Shown piece by piece: positions 31,360 to 39,060 of a stretch of DNA of 43,053 nucleotides. The translations under genes were made by a program, and so were the position numbers. Numbering within the stretch: the stretch's first letter is position 1; every line of letters begins with the position of its first letter. Origin of the DNA: Actinomycetes bacterium (GTDB lineage Bacteria; Actinomycetota; Actinomycetes; Actinomycetales; Cellulomonadaceae); assembly GCA_021793675.1 (NCBI GenBank), contig JAJYSG010000013.1:1-43053 (forward strand), in the 5' to 3' direction. The notes beneath the pieces are model-generated. The model saw nothing but the letters and a program-made list of their open reading frames with translations, was not told the DNA's origin and made no database searches.

Positions 31360-32943
31360 TCACAGGTCGTTGCCGGCGTAGGACTGGTTGAAGCTCTTGT
31401 TGGCCAGGGGGAAGTCCGGGACGATCGTGTCCGCCAGGGCGACCGGCAGCGCCGGCCAGGTGAAGAACGAGGGGTCGACGATCGCGGCCCTGGTGAGGCG
31501 GCCGGCGGCATCCAGCTCCACCCGGTGGCAGGCGGTGCCGCGCCACGCCTCGACGAGCGCCAGCCCGGAGGCGACCGGGGTGCCGCCGAGGTCCTGGTGG
31601 GGTTCGTCGGACCGCCCACCCGCGGCGACGCCCGGCCCGGACCAGGTCCGCCCGGTGCCAAGCCCGCCGTCCAGGCGCGCCACCAGGTCGGCGACGAGGG
31701 CGGCGGAGACCTGCAGCTCGTCCGCGCGCACCCGGAACCGGGCCATGACGTCGCCCTCCTGCGCGGTGCAGGTGCGGAAGGCGGGCCCGAGGTCGACGAA
31801 CGGGTGGTCGCGGCGGGCGTCCACGTCCAGGCCGGAGGCGCGGGCGACGTAGCCGAGCACGCCCATCTCGGCGGCCGCCTCGCGGTGCAGCACCGCGGTC
31901 CCGGTGAACCGGTCGACCAGCACCGACCCGTCCAGGGCGATCCGCACCAGCTCGGCGACCTCGGCGGCGACCGAGCGGACGATGTCCAGGTCGGGCAGGG
32001 CCCGGATCCGGGCGCCGCCGATGCCGATCCCGCCGCGCAGCAGGCGGTGGCCGGTCACCGCGGCGTTCGAGCGCAGCAGCGACTCGCGCAACCGCAGGGC
32101 GTGCGTCTGCAGGATGCCGAGGCCCACGTCGTTGGCCATCGCGCCGAGGTCGGCCGTGTGGCAGTGCAGCCGCTCGAGCTCGAGCAGCAGGGCGCGCACC
32201 AGGCGGTCCTCCTCGGCGACCGGCACGCCGAGCGCGTCCTCGACGGCCATCGCGAACGTCAGGGCGTGCCCCACCGCGGTGTCGCCGCTGATCCGCTCCG
32301 TCAGCGGCAGCGCCTCGTCGGGCGTGCGGCCCTGCAGGTGCTTCTCCAGCCCGCGGTGCACGAACCAGAGCCGGGCCTTCATCCGGACGATCGTCTCCCC
32401 GACCACCGAGAACCTGAAGTGGCCGGGCTCGATCATCCCGGCGTGCACCGGACCCACCGGGATCTCGTAGACGCCCTGGCCCTCGACCGGGACGAAGGCG
32501 AACCCGCTCTCGTCGGGGCCGAAGGCAGGGTCCACGGCGGCGTCGCGGCGCATCGGGTACCACCCGGTGGGCCAGTGCGCGTGGCGGATCAGCCGGCGCG
32601 GCCGCACGTGGTCGCGGGGCTCGATGCCGAACCCGTCGCGCACCGCGCGCTCGAAGCGACCGGCGGGGAACGAGACCGTCGACAGCGACGGCACCCAGGC
32701 GTCGTCGCGCGGCACGGCGACGGTGAGCTCGGTGCGGCGGTCGGTGCCCGGGTGCGCGAACACGTACACCACGCGGAAGCCGGCGGGGCCGTCGTCGTGG
32801 CCGGCGGCCAGGGCCAGCCGGTGGCCGTCGGCGAGCAGGGCCTCGACGCGCGCGGGCAGCGCGTCCCGGCTGACGGCCTGGGACGACGAGAGCGGCGACG
32901 CGGACGACGACCCCGCCGGGCCGCTCGGACGCGGCGCGGTCAC
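31360..32943 (-). CDS. Fused NuoC/NuoD-like large subunit, HycE/HyfG-related, lacking nickel ligands
   Basis: 527 aa. Residues about 25-130 resemble the 30-kDa (NuoC) domain and 150-527 the 49-kDa/hydrogenase large subunit. In [NiFe] hydrogenases the first motif is RxCGxCxxxH. Here it reads RISGDTAVGH (217-226), with Ser219 and Thr222 in place of the cysteines. The terminal DPCxxC motif is replaced by DFPLANKSF (510-518). All four Ni-Fe ligands are therefore gone, and the protein cannot hold the classical active site. This is the pattern of energy-converting hydrogenase-related (Ehr) complexes. Start GTG overlaps the upstream stop (GTGA). Last gene of the operon; positional equivalent of M. 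tuberculosis Rv0087 (hycE). Confidence 0.88.
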   Translation of the reverse strand: MTAPRPSGPAGSSSASPLSSSQAVSRDALPARVEALLADGHRLALAAGHDDGPAGFRVVYVFAHPGTDRRTELTVAVPRDDAWVPSLSTVSFPAGRFERAVRDGFGIEPRDHVRPRRLIRHAHWPTGWYPMRRDAAVDPAFGPDESGFAFVPVEGQGVYEIPVGPVHAGMIEPGHFRFSVVGETIVRMKARLWFVHRGLEKHLQGRTPDEALPLTERISGDTAVGHALTFAMAVEDALGVPVAEEDRLVRALLLELERLHCHTADLGAMANDVGLGILQTHALRLRESLLRSNAAVTGHRLLRGGIGIGGARIRALPDLDIVRSVAAEVAELVRIALDGSVLVDRFTGTAVLHREAAAEMGVLGYVARASGLDVDARRDHPFVDLGPAFRTCTAQEGDVMARFRVRADELQVSAALVADLVARLDGGLGTGRTWSGPGVAAGGRSDEPHQDLGGTPVASGLALVEAWRGTACHRVELDAAGRLTRAAIVDPSFFTWPALPVALADTIVPDFPLANKSFNQSYAGNDL

Positions 32944-34448
32944 GACAGCCCCAGCGTGGCGGCCGCCCGGGCCAGCACGTCGCCGACGGGGAAGGCGACG
33001 AAGCCGATCACGGCCGTCACCCCGAGGGCCAGCACGAGCGGTGTCGTCGGTCCTCGGTCGGCGCCGTGCCCGGGGCTCGGCAGGCCCGCGGACGGCTCCG
33101 CGCGCGTCACTCCGGCGGCCTCGGGGGCGTCGTCGTGCGCCGGGCCGAGCACCATCGACGCCGTCGCCCGCACCAGGCCCGCCACCACCACGAGCAGCAG
33201 CGCCACCACGAGCGCCATCGCCCAGCCCAGCCCGGCCCGCCAGCCGCTCAGGACGATCGCCACCTCGGAGAAGAACAGGGCGAACGGCGGGAAGCCGAGC
33301 AGGGCCGTCATCCCGACCACCAGCGGCACGGCGACGTCGGGACGCCGGGCGAGCAGCCCGCGCACGTCCGCGATGGTGGTGGTGCCCTCCGCCGCCAGCA
33401 TCCGGCCCGCCACCACGAACAGGCTCGCCTTGGCCAGCCCGTGCCCGATGAGGTGCAGCAGCACCGCCGCCAGCGCGATCGGTCCGCCCACAGCGGCCCC
33501 GATGGCCAGCACCCCCATGTGCTCGATGCTCGAGTAGGCGAGCATCCGCTTGTGGTCCCGCTGTCGCAGGATCAGGGCGGCCGCCACCGCCAGCGACCCG
33601 AGCCCGGCGGCCAGCAGCAGGCCGCGGACCAGGCCCGGGCCCAGCACCACGTAGGCGATCGCGCGAATCCGCAGGATCGCGTAGAACGCCACCGCGAGCA
33701 GCACGCCGGACATCAGGCCGGACACCGGCGCGGGCGCCTGGCTGTGCGCGTCCGGCAGCCAGGAGTGCATCGGCGCCAGGCCCGCCTTGGTGGCGAACCC
33801 GAGCACGGCCAGGCCCGCGGCGACCCGGACCAGCCCGTGGTCCAGCGGCAGCTCGCCGCTGACCAGCCGGGTCCAGGACAGGGTCGCCTCCCCGGCGCTG
33901 CGGCTCGCCGCGTACAGCAGCACCGTGCCGAGCAGGGCGATCGCGATGCCCACCGAGCCCAGCACCACGTACTTCCAGGCCGCCTCGAGGGCGCGCGGTC
34001 CGCCGCGGTGGCCCACCAGGAAGGCCGTCGCGATGGTCGTCGCCTCGACGGCCACCCACAGCAGCCCGAGGTTGTCGGTGGTGACGGCGATCGCCATCGC
34101 GCCGAGGAACACGGCCACCAGGGCGGCGTACCGGCGGTCGGTGCGCGTGACGGCCGGCCGCGGCCCCTCGTCGGGACCCGGGCGCGGCGCCAGGCCGGCC
34201 CACGTCGCCGTGAGCCCGACCGCGCCGACGACCGCCAGCATGAGCGCCGAGAGCGGGTCGGCACGCAGCAGGTCCCCGCCGAGGGTGGGCACCGGGCCCC
34301 GGTGCGCGAGCAGCGCGATCCCGGTGGCCAGCAGCACGGCGCTCGTGAGCACACCGGACAGCCGCGTCAGGACGCCGGACACCGGCGTCGCGGCGAGCGC
34401 GCCGACGAGCAGGGCGGCCAGCGGCGGGAGCAGCAGGAGCGCGGTCAT
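32940..34448 (-). CDS. Antiporter-like membrane subunit, HyfF/HycQ-like (NuoL/M/N family)
   Basis: 502 aa with about 13-14 helices. Proton-channel residues are retained: Glu135 (LLWVAVEATTI), Lys221 and His228 in GFATKAGLAPMHSWLPDAHSQAPAPVSG. A later lysine-containing stretch, QRDHKRMLAYSSIEHMG, is also conserved. The ATG shares one base with the preceding stop (TGATG). In complex I-type machines this subunit is an ion-pumping module. A charged 45-residue loop (DDAPEAAGVTRAEPSAGLPS and on) precedes the last helix. Equivalent in order to Rv0086 (hycQ). Confidence 0.88.
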   Translation of the reverse strand: MTALLLLPPLAALLVGALAATPVSGVLTRLSGVLTSAVLLATGIALLAHRGPVPTLGGDLLRADPLSALMLAVVGAVGLTATWAGLAPRPGPDEGPRPAVTRTDRRYAALVAVFLGAMAIAVTTDNLGLLWVAVEATTIATAFLVGHRGGPRALEAAWKYVVLGSVGIAIALLGTVLLYAASRSAGEATLSWTRLVSGELPLDHGLVRVAAGLAVLGFATKAGLAPMHSWLPDAHSQAPAPVSGLMSGVLLAVAFYAILRIRAIAYVVLGPGLVRGLLLAAGLGSLAVAAALILRQRDHKRMLAYSSIEHMGVLAIGAAVGGPIALAAVLLHLIGHGLAKASLFVVAGRMLAAEGTTTIADVRGLLARRPDVAVPLVVGMTALLGFPPFALFFSEVAIVLSGWRAGLGWAMALVVALLLVVVAGLVRATASMVLGPAHDDAPEAAGVTRAEPSAGLPSPGHGADRGPTTPLVLALGVTAVIGFVAFPVGDVLARAAATLGLS

Positions 34449-35158
34449 CAGTCCTTCAGCTCCGTCATCGAGTCGAGCGTGGTGGAGCCGAGCTGCGCCT
34501 GCATGCGCCGGGACAGCACCGCGAGGATCAGCACCACGAGCAGCACGTCCGACGAGACGCCGAGCTCCACCGCGAAAGGCACCCCCGCCGCGGTGAGGAA
34601 CGCCACGGTGGCGATGCCGTTGTCCAGCACGAGGAACCCGATCAGCTGGGACATCGCCCGGCGGCGGTCGACGAGCAGCAGGAAGCCGATGAGCACCATG
34701 CAGACGCCGACCGGGACGGCGAACGCGGCGGGGCCGGAGATCCCGCCGCCGGCGCGGGTGGCCACGCCCGCCGAGATCGGCCGGCTGACCAGGTACGCCA
34801 CGGTGGTCAGCAGCGCCACCAGCACGAGGCTCGCCGTCGGGTTCAGCCGGGCGCCGTCCTCGCGCGCCGCGTCGCCGGCCTCGATCCCGGCCCGCAGCCG
34901 CCGGCCGACCACCCACGGCAGCAGCCACGCGCGCAGCACCAGCACCAGCACGGCGACGACCAGCAGCTCCGCGCGGGCCGAGCGCGGACCCGACAGGCCG
35001 ATCGTCACGGCCAGCACGGCCAGGGACACGCCCTGCACCGTCAGCAGCCGCACCTGCGCGGACAGCTCGCGCCGCCACACCACGAGCACGGACGTCACCA
35101 GCAGGGCGCCGGCGGCGAGGGCGATGAGCTGCGCGGTGGCCGCAGCGGTGCTGGACAT
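34448..35158 (-). CDS. HyfE/HycP-like membrane subunit (NuoK-related)
   Basis: 236 aa, about seven helices. Relatives in hydrogenase-4 complexes (HyfE) fuse a NuoK-like part to extra helices. The C-terminal half has the NuoK-like segment GVCMVLIGFLLLVDRRRAMSQLIGFLVLDNGI. The ATG at 35158 is preferred because GGAGAG lies nine bases upstream. An alternative ATG at 35185 would overlap the previous stop (ATGA), but has no ribosome-binding site. Ends LGSTTLDSMTELKD. Order corresponds to Rv0085 (hycP). Confidence 0.8.
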   Translation of the reverse strand: MSSTAAATAQLIALAAGALLVTSVLVVWRRELSAQVRLLTVQGVSLAVLAVTIGLSGPRSARAELLVVAVLVLVLRAWLLPWVVGRRLRAGIEAGDAAREDGARLNPTASLVLVALLTTVAYLVSRPISAGVATRAGGGISGPAAFAVPVGVCMVLIGFLLLVDRRRAMSQLIGFLVLDNGIATVAFLTAAGVPFAVELGVSSDVLLVVLILAVLSRRMQAQLGSTTLDSMTELKD

Positions 35159-35181
35159 GACGGGAAGCTCTCCGGCGACGC

Positions 35182-36129
35182 TCATGCGACGAGGTAGGAC
35201 GCCGTGACGGCGAGGAAGGCGAGCACGAAGGAGCCGGCCAGCAGCTCCGGGACGCGGAACAGGCGCAGCTTGGCCATGCCGACCTCGGCGGTGGCCAGCA
35301 GCACGGCGAGCACCGCCAGCTTGCCGGCGAGCGCGAGCGCGCCGAGCAGCACCGGCCCGACCGCGGCGGTGCCGGCCACCCCCCACGGCAGCAGCAGGTT
35401 GCCGACCAGCCCGAGCAGCACGGACAGCCGCAGCCAGGACGCGAGGTCCACCCAGGCGAGGTCCCGCGCGGAGGTCTCCAGCACCATCGCCTCGTGGATC
35501 ATCGTCAGCTCGAGGTGGGTGGCCGGGTTGTCGATCGGCAGCCGTCCGGTCTCGGCGAGCACCACGATGGCCAGCGCCACCACCGCGAGCACGCCGGCCG
35601 GGGTGGCGATGCTGGCCGGGTGGTCCCGGCGCGCCGCCACGATGAGCGGCAGCGCGGAGCTGCCCGCGGGGATCGACAGCGCGTAGACGGCCACGAGCAC
35701 GGTCGGCTCGACGAGCGCCGCGATCGTCATGTGCCGGCTGGATCCCATGCCGCCGAAGGCGGATCCCGCATCCAGCCCGAGCAGGGCGATCGCCACCGTG
35801 CCGACGAGCAGCACCGAGACCACGACGAACAGGTCGCCGGGCACCAGGGCGAGCGGCAGCGCCGCGACGAGCGGGACCAGCGCGGCCAGCAGGAGGCTCG
35901 ACGCCAGCAGCACCACCGGTGCGACCACCGTCAGCGGGCTGGTCCCGGCGGCGCGCAGCGGAGTCTTGGCGAGCAGCTTGCGCAGGTCGCGCGCCGGCTG
36001 CAGCACGCCGGGCCCGACGCGCCCCTCGAGCCGCGCCCTCGTCTGGCGCGTCACGCCGATCACCAGCGGTGCGAACACCACCGCCACGGCCACCTGGACC
36101 AGGGCGACGACCAGCGGCGCCACGCTCAC
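35182..36129 (-). CDS. NuoH/HyfC/HycD-like membrane anchor subunit
   Basis: 315 aa, eight helices. Connects the soluble arm to the pump in complex I and group 4 hydrogenases. Family motifs: EGRVGPGVLQPARDLRKLLAKT (35-56) and AETGRLPIDNPATHLELTMIHEAMVLE (about 190-216), the equivalent of the NuoH quinone-site loop AETNRxPFDxPE. The GTG at 36129 overlaps the upstream stop (GTGA). Corresponds to Rv0084 (hycD). Confidence 0.9.
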   Translation of the reverse strand: MSVAPLVVALVQVAVAVVFAPLVIGVTRQTRARLEGRVGPGVLQPARDLRKLLAKTPLRAAGTSPLTVVAPVVLLASSLLLAALVPLVAALPLALVPGDLFVVVSVLLVGTVAIALLGLDAGSAFGGMGSSRHMTIAALVEPTVLVAVYALSIPAGSSALPLIVAARRDHPASIATPAGVLAVVALAIVVLAETGRLPIDNPATHLELTMIHEAMVLETSARDLAWVDLASWLRLSVLLGLVGNLLLPWGVAGTAAVGPVLLGALALAGKLAVLAVLLATAEVGMAKLRLFRVPELLAGSFVLAFLAVTASYLVA

Positions 36130-38132
36130 GCGACCACCACCAGGAGCACCGCCACCAGCGCCGTGAACGAGAACGCGAGGTAGCGGTTGATCGAGCCGTT
36201 CTGCACCCGGCGGGCCCGGTCCGCCACCGCGTCGGCCGCGGCGACCAGCGGACGGTACAGGCGCGCCTCCACGACGTCGTCGACGTGCTGGGCGAACCGG
36301 ACGCGCTCGGCCAGGTACGCGGACTCGCCGACGTGCGTCACCACGACGTCACGGCGGGGCTGCAGGGCGTCGTCGAAGATGCGCGTCACCGGCTCGGCGT
36401 AGGACGTGGCGTTGTACTGCATGCGTGGGCTGGTGCGCACGCCGCCGCAGCCCCAGCCGAGCACGTCGGTGGTCGCCGGGCGGCGCCGGCCCACCACCAG
36501 CACCCCGACGAGGGCGGGCAGCCCCACCACAGCCCCGAGCGCGACCAGCGCCGCCGGACTCAGCACGGCGCCCACGCCGGTCAGCTCCACGCCGCCGAGC
36601 CCGGCGACCCGGGCACCGTCCGCGCCGGTCAGGCCGAGCGCCGCCGCCGCGGCCGCCGCCACCGGGCCGGGCAGCACCCCCAGCGCCAGCACCGCGAGGG
36701 CGCCGAGCGCCATCGCGACCCGCATGCTCGCCGGCGCCTCCTGCGCCCCCGCCGCCCCGGCCGATCGGGCACGAGCCAGGAACGCGATGCCGAACGCTTT
36801 GACGAACGTCACCAGCGCGAGCCCGGCGGTCAGCGCGATGAGGCCCAGGGTGAGCGGCACGACGACGGCGACGACGCGATCGGCCGGGCGCACGCCGTGG
36901 ATCAGCGCCTGCAGCAGGGTCCATTCGGCGACGAACCCACCGGTCACCGGCAGCGCCGCCGCGCCGAGGGACCCGACCCCGAACGTCGCCGCCGTCCACG
37001 GCATCGTGTGCACCAGCCCGCCCATCCGGTCCAGGTCACGCTCGCCGGTGGCCCTCAGCACGGCGCCGGCACCGAGGAACAGCGTCGCCTTGAACGCGGC
37101 ATGGCTGATGAGCAGCAGCAACGCCGCGACCAGCGCGACACTCGCCGCACCCGGGACGTGGTGGGTGCGCAGCAGCATCGCCAGGCCGATCGCGGCCACC
37201 ACCAGGCCGAGGTTCTCCGAGGTGGAGTACGCGAGCAGCCGTTTGAGGTCGGTGGCGACCCCGGCGTGCAGGATGCCGTACACGGCCGAGCCGGCGCCGA
37301 GGACGATGAGCAGCACCGCCCACCAGGTGGGGCCGCCGGGCAGCAGCCGGATGCCGACCAGCAGGATCCCGTAGCCGCCGAGCGACACCATCGCGGCGCT
37401 CATCAGCGCAGAGGCGTGGCTGGGCGCCTCCGGGTGGGCCCGCGGCAGCCACACGTGCAGCGGCGCGACGCCCGCCTTGGCCGCGAAGCCGACGACGAGC
37501 AGCACGAAGGCGACGGTGGCGCCGGGGCGCGTCGGATCGGTGCCGGCGAGCGCCGCGAAGCTCGTGGCGCCTGCCGTGGCGGCCAGCGCCGCGAATCCCG
37601 CGAGGATCAGGACGAAGCTGAGGTGGGTCATGACGGCGTACCAGACGGCCGCCTCGCGCGCGGTGCGGCGCCGGGCGTGCTCGGCCAGCACGAGCACGGT
37701 GGACGCGGCGGCCATCAGCTCCCACGCGAGCAGGAACGAGACCACGTCGCCCGCCGCCGGCACCAGCTGCATGCCGAGCAGGAACAGCGCGAGCGCCGCC
37801 CACTGCGTGCGGGACGCGGAGGCGCCGTGCACGTAGCCGATCGCGTACAGCGAGGCGAGCACGCCCACGGCTCCCACCAGCAGCATCAGCAGGCCGCCGA
37901 GCCGGTCCGGCGCGATCACCGCGGGCGGCAGCGGCAGAGCCGTGGCCACCCGCACGACGACCGTCCGACCGCCCAGCGCCAGCGCGCCCGTCACCACGCC
38001 GGCCCCCGCCACGAGGGCGCACGAGAGGCCGGCCAGCACGGTGCGCACGCGACCGCGGGTCGCCACCGCGAGCACCACGGCGCACGCTGCGAGGGCGGCC
38101 TGCGCGAGCAGGCCCCATGCCACGGCGTTCAT
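36126..38132 (-). CDS. Antiporter-like membrane subunit with long C-terminus, HyfB-like
   Basis: 668 aa. The core is a NuoL/M/N-type pump with Glu138 (LLAWELMAAAS), Lys219 and His226 (GFAAKAGVAPLHVWLPRAHPEAPSHASALMS), and a later KRLLAYSTSENLG lysine site. After residue ~550 an extended tail contains the HyfB-typical WGCGGVRTSPRMQYNATSYAEPVTRIF, a soluble helix and a final membrane helix (YLAFSFTALVAVLLVVVA). The ATG overlaps the preceding stop (ATGA). With the HyfF-like protein it makes two pump modules. Corresponds to Rv0083. Confidence 0.9.
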   Translation of the reverse strand: MNAVAWGLLAQAALAACAVVLAVATRGRVRTVLAGLSCALVAGAGVVTGALALGGRTVVVRVATALPLPPAVIAPDRLGGLLMLLVGAVGVLASLYAIGYVHGASASRTQWAALALFLLGMQLVPAAGDVVSFLLAWELMAAASTVLVLAEHARRRTAREAAVWYAVMTHLSFVLILAGFAALAATAGATSFAALAGTDPTRPGATVAFVLLVVGFAAKAGVAPLHVWLPRAHPEAPSHASALMSAAMVSLGGYGILLVGIRLLPGGPTWWAVLLIVLGAGSAVYGILHAGVATDLKRLLAYSTSENLGLVVAAIGLAMLLRTHHVPGAASVALVAALLLLISHAAFKATLFLGAGAVLRATGERDLDRMGGLVHTMPWTAATFGVGSLGAAALPVTGGFVAEWTLLQALIHGVRPADRVVAVVVPLTLGLIALTAGLALVTFVKAFGIAFLARARSAGAAGAQEAPASMRVAMALGALAVLALGVLPGPVAAAAAAALGLTGADGARVAGLGGVELTGVGAVLSPAALVALGAVVGLPALVGVLVVGRRRPATTDVLGWGCGGVRTSPRMQYNATSYAEPVTRIFDDALQPRRDVVVTHVGESAYLAERVRFAQHVDDVVEARLYRPLVAAADAVADRARRVQNGSINRYLAFSFTALVAVLLVVVA

Positions 38133-38641
38133 CGACCGGTGACCTGCCGCAACGCCGCGACGATGTCCGCCGGTGCCGGCGGGCACCCCGGCACCGCCAG
38201 GTCCACCGGGACCACGTCTCCCACCGCACCCACCACGCCGTAGGCACCGCGGAACGCGCCGCAGTCCCGTGCGCAGTCACCGACCGCCAGCACCACGCGG
38301 GGCTGCGGGGTGGCCGCCACCGTCAGCCGGAGGGGCTCGGCCATGTTCCGGGTGACCGCGCCCGTGACCAGCACCACGTCGGCATGCCGCGGCGAGGCGA
38401 CCAGGCGGGCGCCGTAGCGCTCCGCGTCGTACACGGGCCCGAACGCGGCGGCCAGCTCGATCTCGCAGCCGTTGCAGGAGCCGGCGTCGACGTGCCGCAC
38501 CTGGACGCTGCCCCGCAGGGCACGGGGCAGCACCGGCGCCTCGGCGCCGGTGTCGTGGTCGGGCCGCCCGGGCACGCCAGGGGCCGGCTCCGCGATCCGA
38601 CCGGTGCGCCAGATCAGCCGGGCCAGGCCTGCCAGGCTCAT
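38129..38641 (-). CDS. NuoB/HyfI-like iron-sulfur subunit
   Basis: 170 aa. The cysteines expected to bind the single N2-type [4Fe-4S] cluster are present: Cys56 and Cys59 (GSCNGCE), Cys123 (VGDCARDCG) and Cys153 (PGCPP), plus Cys127. So the electron-transfer end of the complex looks functional even though the catalytic subunit has lost nickel binding. An N-terminal helix of about 20 residues may contact the membrane. ATG at 38641 overlaps the arsR stop (ATGA). Corresponds to Rv0082. Confidence 0.9.
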   Translation of the reverse strand: MSLAGLARLIWRTGRIAEPAPGVPGRPDHDTGAEAPVLPRALRGSVQVRHVDAGSCNGCEIELAAAFGPVYDAERYGARLVASPRHADVVLVTGAVTRNMAEPLRLTVAATPQPRVVLAVGDCARDCGAFRGAYGVVGAVGDVVPVDLAVPGCPPAPADIVAALRQVTGR

Positions 38642-39000
38642 CGGCCGATCGACCCGTCCTCCGACGGCGCCTCGGCGGCGGAGTGCTCGAGCTCGGCCTT
38701 GAGGCCCTGCTGCCCGTCGAACAGGTCCACCAGCAGCCGCCGGGCGACGCGCAACAGCTCCGCCACCGCCGGCACGCTGGCCGCGTAGACCACCTCGCCG
38801 CCCTCGCGCCGCTGGCTGACCAGACCGGCCCGGCGCAGCACGCCGAGCTGCTGCGAGAGGTTGGACTGCTCGATGTCGATGGCGGCCAGCAGCTCGTGCA
38901 CGGGTCGGTCGCGCTCCGAGAGCAGCTCGATGATCCGGATCCGGGCCGGGTGGCCCAGCGTGCGGAACAGCTCCGCCTTGACCTGGTAGAGCTCGCTCAC
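38638..39000 (-). CDS. ArsR-family transcriptional regulator, cysteine-free, Rv0081-like
   Basis: 120 aa winged-helix repressor. The GTG at 39000 is chosen because GGAGG stands seven bases upstream; the frame is open to 39036, which would run into the promoter. The HTH is in ERDRPVHELLAAIDIEQSNLSQQLGVLRRAGLVSQRREGGEVVYAAS. There is not one cysteine, so no thiolate metal site of the ArsR/SmtB type is possible; the signal must be something else. The M. tuberculosis counterpart Rv0081 heads the same gene order and is tied to the hypoxic response. First gene of the operon; likely represses it through the palindrome at 39036-39053. Confidence 0.88.
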   Translation of the reverse strand: MSELYQVKAELFRTLGHPARIRIIELLSERDRPVHELLAAIDIEQSNLSQQLGVLRRAGLVSQRREGGEVVYAASVPAVAELLRVARRLLVDLFDGQQGLKAELEHSAAEAPSEDGSIGR

Positions 39001-39031: not shown

Positions 39032-39060
39032 AACATACGAAGGAATCTTCATACCAACAA
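39032..39060 (-). promoter_or_regulatory. Promoter with embedded operator for the arsR-complex operon
   Basis: Minus strand TTGTTG (39055-39060), 17 bases, TATGTT (39032-39037). Filling the spacer is an inverted repeat, TACGAAG (39036-39042), GAAT, CTTCATA (39047-39053), matching at six of seven positions. A repressor bound there would block polymerase directly. The stretch is strikingly AT-rich for this DNA. The start would be near 39025, with the arsR Shine-Dalgarno 25 bases on. Confidence 0.7.

What the first reader, a model, noticed from the sequence alone, without database searches (positions are those of the whole stretch)
31360..39000. Seven-gene complex I/hydrogenase-like operon without nickel ligands, Rv0081-Rv0087-like
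Gene order is arsR, NuoB-like, HyfB-like, HyfC-like, HyfE-like, HyfF-like, NuoCD-like, the same as the M. tuberculosis Rv0081-Rv0087 locus often annotated as formate hydrogenlyase. In this copy the large subunit has RISGDTAVGH instead of RxCGxCxxxH and DFPLANKSF instead of DPCxxC. It therefore cannot be a [NiFe] hydrogenase. Pump residues (Glu138/Lys219/His226 and Glu135/Lys221/His228) and the Fe-S cluster cysteines remain, so it should still transfer electrons and move ions. The reaction is unknown: this is the best candidate in the window for an undescribed function.
Basis: partly seen in the sequence, partly recalled or inferred. Interest (0 to 1): 0.82.

Follow-up and report, generated by a model that had tools for sequence, protein, structure and literature searches.

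The report
Nickel-free hydrogenase-like membrane complex
These seven genes, of a kind labelled a hydrogen-making enzyme in the tuberculosis bacterium, encode a membrane machine related to respiratory complex I that has lost the nickel site needed for hydrogen and most of its electron wiring but keeps its ion-pumping parts, so that label is doubtful and its real job is open.

Summary
Largely confirmed: 31360-39000 (minus strand) holds an intact, overlapping operon arsR-nuoB-hyfB-hyfC-hyfE-hyfF-nuoCD. The ArsR's best match among solved structures is M. tuberculosis Rv0081. The large subunit's closest solved fold is E. coli formate hydrogenlyase HycE, but HycE's nickel ligands C241/C244/C531/C534 are S219/T222/S521/G524. 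None of 79 named relatives has a cysteine at any of the four positions. HypD, needed for [NiFe] cofactors, was not found in the four nearest near-complete genomes; one of them, G032, has no formate dehydrogenase hit above a NuoG-like level.

New here: the operon encodes no ferredoxin subunit (HycF/HyfH type); the small subunit's own cluster ligands are kept in 92 of 92 rows. In a related clade (B1) even those are lost in five of five readable genomes, while pump and coupling residues, checked in two, stay. Nickel-free "Ehr" complexes are a known kind; this variant has lost both ends of its wire. Most likely an ion-translocating complex fed through one cluster by a soluble donor; a redox-free transporter is the bold alternative. 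M. tuberculosis' own sequence was not retrieved.

The parts
38638..39000 (-). ArsR-family regulator, Rv0081-like; likely GTG start at 39000 behind GGAGG (the longer frame starts with ATG at 39036)
   Evidence: Pfam HTH_5; best solved structure 6JMI Rv0081 E 3.9e-30, next best 8.9e-12; starts listed; no cysteine in the sequence
38129..38641 (-). NuoB/HycG-like small subunit, 170 aa, one predicted [4Fe-4S] cluster, no ferredoxin domain
   Evidence: Oxidored_q6; best structures FHL HycG 7z0s and MBH 6cfw; the four Cys ligands kept in 92 of 92 clade A rows, window included, 91 of them distinct
36126..38132 (-). HyfB-like (NuoL/MrpA-type) antiporter-like subunit, 668 aa
   Evidence: Proton_antipo_M; 33% to E. 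coli HyfB; E138, K219, H226, H344, K348 each in 93 of 95 rows, 2 rows gapped
35182..36129 (-). HyfC/HycD (NuoH)-like membrane anchor, 315 aa, coupling loop ETGRLPIDNPATHLELTMIHEAMVLE
   Evidence: NADHdh; loop alignment across clades
34448..35185 (-). HyfE-like (NuoK-type) subunit, 245 aa
   Evidence: NCBIfam hydrogenase 4 membrane subunit NF008556 E 5e-19, below cut-off; no Pfam hit; 25% to HyfE
32940..34448 (-). HyfF-like (NuoN/M-type) antiporter-like subunit, 502 aa
   Evidence: Proton_antipo_M; 42% to E. coli HyfF; E135 and K221 in 95 of 97 rows (2 gapped), H228 in 94 of 97 (2 gapped, 1 Q)
31360..32943 (-). NuoCD/HycE-like large subunit, 527 aa, no nickel ligands and no C-terminal extension
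   Evidence: fold best match 7z0s_E
32266..32295 (-). Former first nickel site, R217-H226 RISGDTAVGH (S219, T222 in place of C241, C244 of HycE)
   Evidence: alignments
31363..31395 (-). Former second nickel site at the C-terminus, S517-L527 SFNQSYAGNDL (S521, G524 in place of C531, C534 of HycE)
   Evidence: alignments; near invariant in 80 sequences
38183..38476 (-). Stretch of the small-subunit gene from C56 to C153, holding the four predicted cluster ligands C56, C59, C123, C153
39034..39053 (-). AT-rich imperfect palindrome TATGAAGATTCCTTCGTATG ahead of arsR, candidate ArsR operator
   Evidence: position. Window-type pattern TGAAGA..TTC in 10 of 84 upstream stretches; a looser pattern, fitted after seeing relatives and not matching the window itself, in 52 of 84 (letter-shuffle means 0.4 and 1.7): weak support

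Best explanation
It is an Ehr-type complex: a membrane complex of the complex I / group 4 hydrogenase superfamily, related to Hyf/Hyc formate hydrogenlyase, that lacks what is needed to make or use H2. Shown by sequence: nickel ligands gone, no maturation tail, no ferredoxin subunit in the operon; one [4Fe-4S] ligand set, the hydrogenase proton-path residues, the coupling loop and two antiporter-like pumps kept; an Rv0081-like regulator in front. Inferred: a soluble low-potential donor (ferredoxin or a dehydrogenase subunit made elsewhere) docks on the small subunit where HycF/HyfH would sit and reduces its single cluster. The electron passes to a small acceptor in the rebuilt SGDT/SYAGNDL cavity, and the protonation changes there drive H+ or Na+ across the membrane through HyfC, HyfE, HyfF and HyfB. 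ArsR probably switches the operon on under low oxygen or redox stress, as reported for the M. tuberculosis locus. Donor, acceptor and ion are not known.
For: Large-subunit fold and sequence nearest to HycE (7z0s_E, Foldseek E 1.2e-26; phmmer E 1.4e-48). Ligand quartet CCCC -> STSG; in 79 named relatives STSG 70, SSSG 7, ATSG 2. HycE proton-path residues E193, R478, H284, E437, R395 are E172, R468, H262, E409, R368 here (roles from PMC9474812, passages). The cavity is rebuilt, not decayed: N515-N519, S521-Y522 and G524-L527 are at 99-100%, A523 and S219 at 97%, T222 at 91% in 80 sequences. Small-subunit cluster ligands 92 of 92 rows, with HycG-like CxxC spacing. Pump residues kept. Purifying selection on all genes. 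HypD not found in G032, G034, G027, G036, while 6 of 6 genomes with an FHL-type subunit have it. Ehr as a described class outside the hydrogenases.
Against: No donor gene is linked: neighbours are not conserved. Clade B1 keeps the cavity motif (and, in the two loci checked, pump residues and coupling loop) but has lost the cluster ligands, so the cavity need not be an electron acceptor. One canopy residue of HycE (D529) is N519 here, and beta1-beta2 Glu is E in 38 of 42 clade A rows, not all. No structure of the assembled complex was modelled; in the lone-subunit model the C-terminal site (494-527) and the 141-187 loop have pLDDT under 50.
Confidence: 0.48

Rival explanations
1. Redox-free transporter. 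The complex has gone back to being a secondary H+/Na+ (or other ion) transporter of the Mrp kind; the former catalytic arm is a plug or ligand-binding gate, and the single cluster is structural or senses O2/NO/redox state.
For: The wire is cut at both ends: no Ni site and no ferredoxin domain. In clade B1 the small-subunit ligands read T, C, D, D in place of C56, C59, C123, C153 in 5 of 5 readable genomes, while the SGD..SYxGNDL cavity and, in the 2 loci checked, pump residues and coupling loop are kept. The fourth ligand is also lost in 2 of 2 clade D and 2 of 4 clade E rows. DabB-DabA is a precedent for a non-redox use of a complex I pump subunit (PMC13144422, abstract and outline).
Against: In the window's own clade the four cluster ligands are invariant (92 of 92). 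B1's place is not settled: sister to clade A in the large-subunit tree (100/97), basal in the membrane-subunit tree. B1 may be a special case.
Confidence: 0.28
2. Small quinone reductase: electrons go from a soluble donor through the one cluster to menaquinone in the cavity, like a cut-down complex I.
For: Superfamily membership; second-tier fold matches are complex I NuoCD; actinobacteria use menaquinone (general knowledge).
Against: The complex I quinone residues H38/Y87 (named in PMC7684303, passages) have no evident counterpart: NuoD MDY aligns with ISG and the beta1-beta2 loop is EPGH as in hydrogenases. The small subunit has CxxC, not the tandem cysteines of cluster N2.
Confidence: 0.14
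3. [NiFe] hydrogenase or formate hydrogenlyase, as the M. tuberculosis operon is annotated.
For: Overall homology to Hyc/Hyf; literature label; HypD is present in 9 of 19 clade A genomes and 66 of 80 mycobacterial carriers, and many carriers have FDH-like proteins.
Against: All four Ni ligands replaced in the window and in 79 of 79 named relatives; HypD not found in 10 of 19 clade A genomes (one of them the 62% complete window genome) nor in 14 of 80 mycobacterial carriers; G032, completeness 100, has neither HypD nor an FDH-alpha hit better than E 5e-19.
Confidence: 0.01
4. Decaying relic without function.
For: Loss of cofactor ligands in several clades.
Against: dN/dS 0.11-0.33 in all seven genes, near-invariant cavity, operon order kept across many genera.
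Confidence: 0.03

Closest known systems
M. tuberculosis Rv0081-Rv0087 (hyc locus)
   Same: Gene order by name: regulator, oxidoreductase, oxidoreductase, hycD, hycP, hycQ, hycE (PMC6901956 table, passages); the window ArsR matches Rv0081 best among solved structures
   Different: The M. tuberculosis sequences themselves were not retrieved; papers seen in passages call it a putative hydrogenase or formate hydrogenlyase
Ehr complexes (energy-converting hydrogenase-related; Geobacter Ehr, Riflemargulisbacteria FDH-Ehr)
   Same: Group 4-like, no Ni/Fe ligands, antiporter-like subunits (PMC6349859, passages; HydDB lists Ehr among families that do not metabolise H2)
   Different: Here no ferredoxin subunit and no linked formate dehydrogenase was found and an ArsR gene heads the operon; no named Ehr sequence was available for a tree
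E. coli Hyf / Hyc (formate hydrogenlyase)
   Same: HyfB, C, E, F, G(HycE), I(HycG) homologues, 25-42% identity
   Different: No HyfA, HyfD, HyfH, HyfJ or protease in the operon; no Ni ligands; no C-terminal extension; small subunit 170 aa against 255/252 aa, without their C-terminal part
P. furiosus MBS (sulfane reductase)
   Same: Nickel-free member of the superfamily
   Different: MBS keeps two large-subunit cysteines, has a shortened motif that leaves one Fe open, and two further clusters in MbsN (PMC7684303, passages); here no such cysteine, HycG-length motif, no MbsN-like subunit in the operon
Respiratory complex I
   Same: Core fold of NuoCD, NuoB, NuoH, NuoK, NuoL/N type subunits
   Different: No counterpart of the quinone residues, no NuoEFG/I in the operon; the genome has a separate NuoD
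Mrp antiporter / DAB complex
   Same: Pump subunits of the same family, used there without redox chemistry
   Different: The former hydrogenase arm is retained here; no MrpB, E, F or G was recognised in the operon

Membership tests
[NiFe] hydrogenase group 4 / formate hydrogenlyase | Four cysteine ligands of the Ni-Fe site | tested here: not met
   S219/T222/S521/G524; no cysteine at any of the four in 79 of 79 named relatives
[NiFe] hydrogenase group 4 / formate hydrogenlyase | C-terminal extension after DPCxxC, cleaved on maturation (not universal in the group; recalled) | tested here: not met
   Protein ends NDL, three residues after G524; HycE/HyfG and L047-type proteins have the extension
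[NiFe] hydrogenase group 4 / formate hydrogenlyase | Hyp maturation machinery in the genome | tested here: not met
   HypD only was tested: not found in G000 (62% complete) nor in G032, G034, G027, G036 (completeness 99-100); 6 of 6 FHL-type genomes have it; 9 of 19 clade A genomes do have HypD
[NiFe] hydrogenase group 4 / formate hydrogenlyase | 2x[4Fe-4S] ferredoxin-like subunit (HycF/HyfH/MbhN/NuoI) | tested here: not met
   In the window the nearest CxxCxxCxxxC frame is 11 kb away; 8 motif hits in 6 of 79 named loci, 7 of them 2.3-6.3 kb outside the operon and one (L179) inside it in an overlapping 121-aa frame. Two-cluster ferredoxins are fused to NuoB in clade B2
Formate hydrogenlyase | Formate dehydrogenase partner | tested here: not met
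   Nothing linked; in G032 best FDH-alpha hit E 5e-19, about 4 kb from its NuoD, so probably NuoG. Several other carriers (e.g. G027, G034, G036) do have FDH-like proteins
Ehr (hydrogenase-related complexes) | Homologous to group 4 large/small subunits but lacking Ni/Fe ligands | tested here: met
   definition from PMC6349859 (passages)
Ehr (hydrogenase-related complexes) | Mrp/antiporter-like membrane subunits | tested here: met
   Two Proton_antipo_M subunits, NADHdh
Ehr (hydrogenase-related complexes) | Groups with named Ehr sequences in a tree | not tested
   No named Ehr sequence was fetched
Ehr (hydrogenase-related complexes) | Couples an electron transfer to charge translocation | not testable with these tools
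   Biochemistry needed; the role is only suspected for the known ones too
Respiratory complex I | Quinone residues (T. thermophilus Nqo4 H38, Y87) and tandem-cysteine cluster N2 | tested here: not met
   residue names from PMC7684303 and PMC9474812 passages
MBS sulfane reductase | Shortened small-subunit motif leaving one Fe of the proximal cluster without cysteine | tested here: not met
   Same spacing as HycG, all four cysteines present
Rv0081-Rv0087 locus | Same gene set and order with an Rv0081-type regulator | tested here: met
   Order by name; 63 of 79 named relatives of the window show exactly this order; ArsR to 6JMI E 3.9e-30
Rv0081-Rv0087 locus | M. tuberculosis Rv0087 itself lacks the Ni ligands | not tested
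   Sequence not retrieved; the M. gastri, M. persicum and M. szulgai relatives do lack them
Mrp antiporter | Seven-subunit MrpA-G set | tested here: not met
   Only the shared pump-type subunits were recognised

The most novel reading that the evidence does not exclude
A complex I-type machine that runs without electron transfer. The Rv0087-like family gave up hydrogen chemistry and its electron input, and now works as an ion transporter controlled by a ligand in the old catalytic cavity. Clade B1 is the end point, with no redox cofactor site recognised in its operon; the window's clade keeps one cluster only as a structural element or as a switch that reports low oxygen.
Probability: 0.28. 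Interest if true: 0.9.

Novelty: new variant of a known kind. Interest (0 to 1): 0.62.

Why it matters
Papers seen here in passages label the M. tuberculosis hyc operon a putative [NiFe] hydrogenase or formate hydrogenlyase and note that parts of it were scored essential and linked to hypoxia. If the whole family has no nickel site and can live in genomes without HypD, that label misdirects experiments on hydrogen and formate in dormancy; reading Rv0087 itself is the first check. The relatives also form a natural series (ferredoxin intact, degenerate, absent; cluster present, lost) for asking which parts of complex I are needed for electron transfer and which for ion movement, an open question in the coupling mechanism.

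Tried and rejected
Formate hydrogenlyase / hydrogenase: rejected on ligands, HypD and FDH. Displaced cysteines: none. MBS-type open cluster: spacing does not fit. Complex I quinone site: residues absent. A linked electron donor: clustering of 386 neighbour proteins (of at least 80 aa, from a simple gene caller of my own) from 40 loci and part of the window gave no conserved partner; 13 of them were printed and read but not scanned against a family library. Formate dehydrogenase as partner: the search over 70 genomes is not clean, since 70 of 70 have some hit (molybdoenzymes, NuoG); among carriers G032 and G333 have none better than about E 1e-18, others do.

Result against my first reading: I took clade B1 to be the sister of the window's clade from the large-subunit tree (100/97). 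A tree of HyfB+HyfC+HyfF puts B1 at the base and the four-cysteine clade C next to clade A (100/99). AU tests: A+C rejected by the large subunit (p 0.013); A+B1 borderline in the membrane set (p 0.050). B1's place is therefore open. Both trees carry long-branch or composition warnings.

An N-terminal helix of the small subunit resembles that of HycF/HyfH (G[RTK][IVTL].E[PTA] pattern in 68 of 92, not in 24), which would mean that a ferredoxin domain was cut out of a fusion; the stretch is too short to prove it. HypD is present in most carriers of the one mycobacterial genus sampled (66 of 80), so HypD absence is an argument only for the genomes that lack it. In clade D the third cluster ligand aligns with Pro but a cysteine lies one or two residues away, so I count only the fourth as lost. 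AlphaFold of the lone large subunit (pLDDT 73) gave the fold but not the whole cavity. A paper search with five Ehr terms found nothing. Ten paper searches listed no paper that I recognised as reporting that Rv0087-like proteins lack nickel ligands; most listed papers were not opened, He 2011 is not held, and Berney 2014 and Marreiros 2013 were seen only as citations.

Full report
What is there. The minus strand of 31360-39000 carries seven genes that overlap start-to-stop: arsR, a NuoB-like small subunit, HyfB-, HyfC-, HyfE- and HyfF-like membrane subunits and a NuoCD-like large subunit. Pfam assigns all but the HyfE-like one to the expected families; NCBIfam finds the HyfE relation below cut-off. 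No complex I or hydrogenase model in the NCBIfam listing reaches its curated cut-off (for the two pump subunits only the best 25 of 72 and 73 models are listed).

Not a hydrogenase. Aligned to E. coli HycE, the four nickel ligands C241, C244, C531 and C534 correspond to S219, T222, S521 and G524. The protein stops three residues after the last position and has no maturation tail. At the four positions they read STSG in 70, SSSG in 7 and ATSG in 2, with no cysteine in any. HypD was not found in the four nearest genomes of completeness 99-100 (G032, G034, G027, G036) nor in 10 of 19 clade A genomes tested (the 62% complete window genome among the ten), while 6 of 6 genomes with an FHL-type subunit have it; 14 of 80 mycobacterial carriers lack it and 66 have it. 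G032, the nearest relative, has no FDH-alpha hit better than E 5e-19, and that one lies about 4 kb from its NuoD and is probably NuoG. As far as sequence can tell, nickel chemistry is excluded for this operon, and formate-to-hydrogen chemistry has neither partner in G032.

Not a ruin. dN/dS between the window and G032 is 0.11-0.33 for the seven genes. The altered C-terminal catalytic segment is among the most conserved of the protein (last 23 residues: rank 11 of 505 windows; GVYEIPVGPVHAGMIEPGHFRFS: rank 1 of 505), the first site less so (rank 149 of 517; 80 sequences). The hydrogenase proton-path residues listed for E. coli FHL (PMC9474812, passages) are kept at five positions and D529 is replaced by N519. 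Pump residues and the HyfC coupling loop are kept. Gene order arsR-nuoB-hyfB-hyfC-hyfE-hyfF-nuoCD is exact in 63 of 79 named loci; among the other 16 there are incomplete operons, split or duplicated matches and missing or misplaced arsR, which I did not examine one by one.

The wiring. In formate hydrogenlyase, electrons reach the small-subunit cluster through HycB and HycF (PMC9474812, passages). In the window the nearest ferredoxin-type frame is 11 kb from the operon; among the 79 named relatives there are eight motif hits in six loci, seven of them 2.3-6.3 kb outside the operon and one inside it in an overlapping frame of 121 aa (L179), which I take for chance. Comparing relatives: clade B2 has a two-cluster ferredoxin fused in front of NuoB; clade E a fusion with a degenerate ferredoxin; clade D a separate degenerate one; in clades A (window) and C none was found. 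The single cluster's four ligands are invariant in clade A (92 of 92 rows, 91 distinct). In clade B1, found in 6 of 19 genomes of its family, the positions read T, C, D, D in all 5 genomes whose small subunit could be read, while the large subunit keeps SGD[ST]SF in 6 of 6 loci; the SFNLSYSGNDL end is seen in 5 of 6 and cut off at a contig end in L254. Pump residues and coupling loop were checked in 2 of these and are kept. So at least one branch of this family encodes a complex I-like assembly with no redox cofactor site recognised in its operon.

Trees. A large-subunit tree of 93 rows, with the nickel motifs removed, makes every clade monophyletic and separates all of them from FHL-type subunits and NuoD. 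B1 joins clade A there (100/97), but not in a tree of three membrane subunits; AU tests disagree mildly. Whether B1 is the closest relative of the window's clade is undecided. The four-cysteine clade C sits among the cysteine-less ones in both trees, and in 7 of its 10 genomes HypD was not found, so even those cysteines may not hold nickel.

How it may work. I favour an ion-translocating complex fed by a soluble donor at the place vacated by HycF, with an unknown acceptor in the rebuilt cavity (0.48). A redox-free transporter is the main rival (0.28). What decides between them is whether transport needs a reductant. The Rv0081-like regulator and reports of hypoxia- and DosR-linked expression of the M. 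tuberculosis locus (PMC6901956, passages; PMC2799521, passages) suggest use under low oxygen; no expression data exist here for the window's organism.

What is known. Ehr complexes are a described class of group 4 relatives that lack Ni/Fe ligands (PMC6349859, passages), and the HydDB classifier is trained to exclude Ehr as a family that does not metabolise H2 (PMC5037454, passages). A link to formate dehydrogenase has been suggested for Geobacter (PMC7894505, passages) and Riflemargulisbacteria. The M. tuberculosis locus is described as a putative [NiFe] hydrogenase or formate hydrogenlyase in papers seen in passages (PMC6901956, PMC2799521, PMC3087520). My ten searches listed no paper that I recognised as placing the Rv0087-like family among Ehr, but key subscription papers could not be opened, so a claim of first report is not made. 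The M. tuberculosis sequence was not retrieved; M. gastri, M. persicum and M. szulgai relatives lack all four ligands.

Noticed in passing
   Followed up: partly
L107-L113, L121, L128, L129 (clade C): Rv0087-like proteins with cysteines at the nickel positions (all four in 9 of 10, three in one) but no C-terminal extension and no ferredoxin subunit found; HypD was not found in 7 of 10 genomes, so the cysteines may hold something other than nickel.
   Followed up: partly
L104-L106 (clade B2): Natural fusion of a two-cluster ferredoxin to the NuoB-like subunit next to a nickel-free large subunit.
   Followed up: no
L116, L117, L122, L130 (clade E): HyfF-like subunit has lost the otherwise kept Glu135 (Ala or Gly in 4 of 4) and HyfB-like His226 is changed, so the pump itself is altered there.
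   Followed up: no
window 39034-39053: AT-rich imperfect palindrome ahead of arsR in a stretch of about 75% G+C; a related motif lies upstream of arsR in relatives (10 of 84 for the window-type pattern, 52 of 84 for a looser one), letter-shuffle control only.
   Followed up: partly
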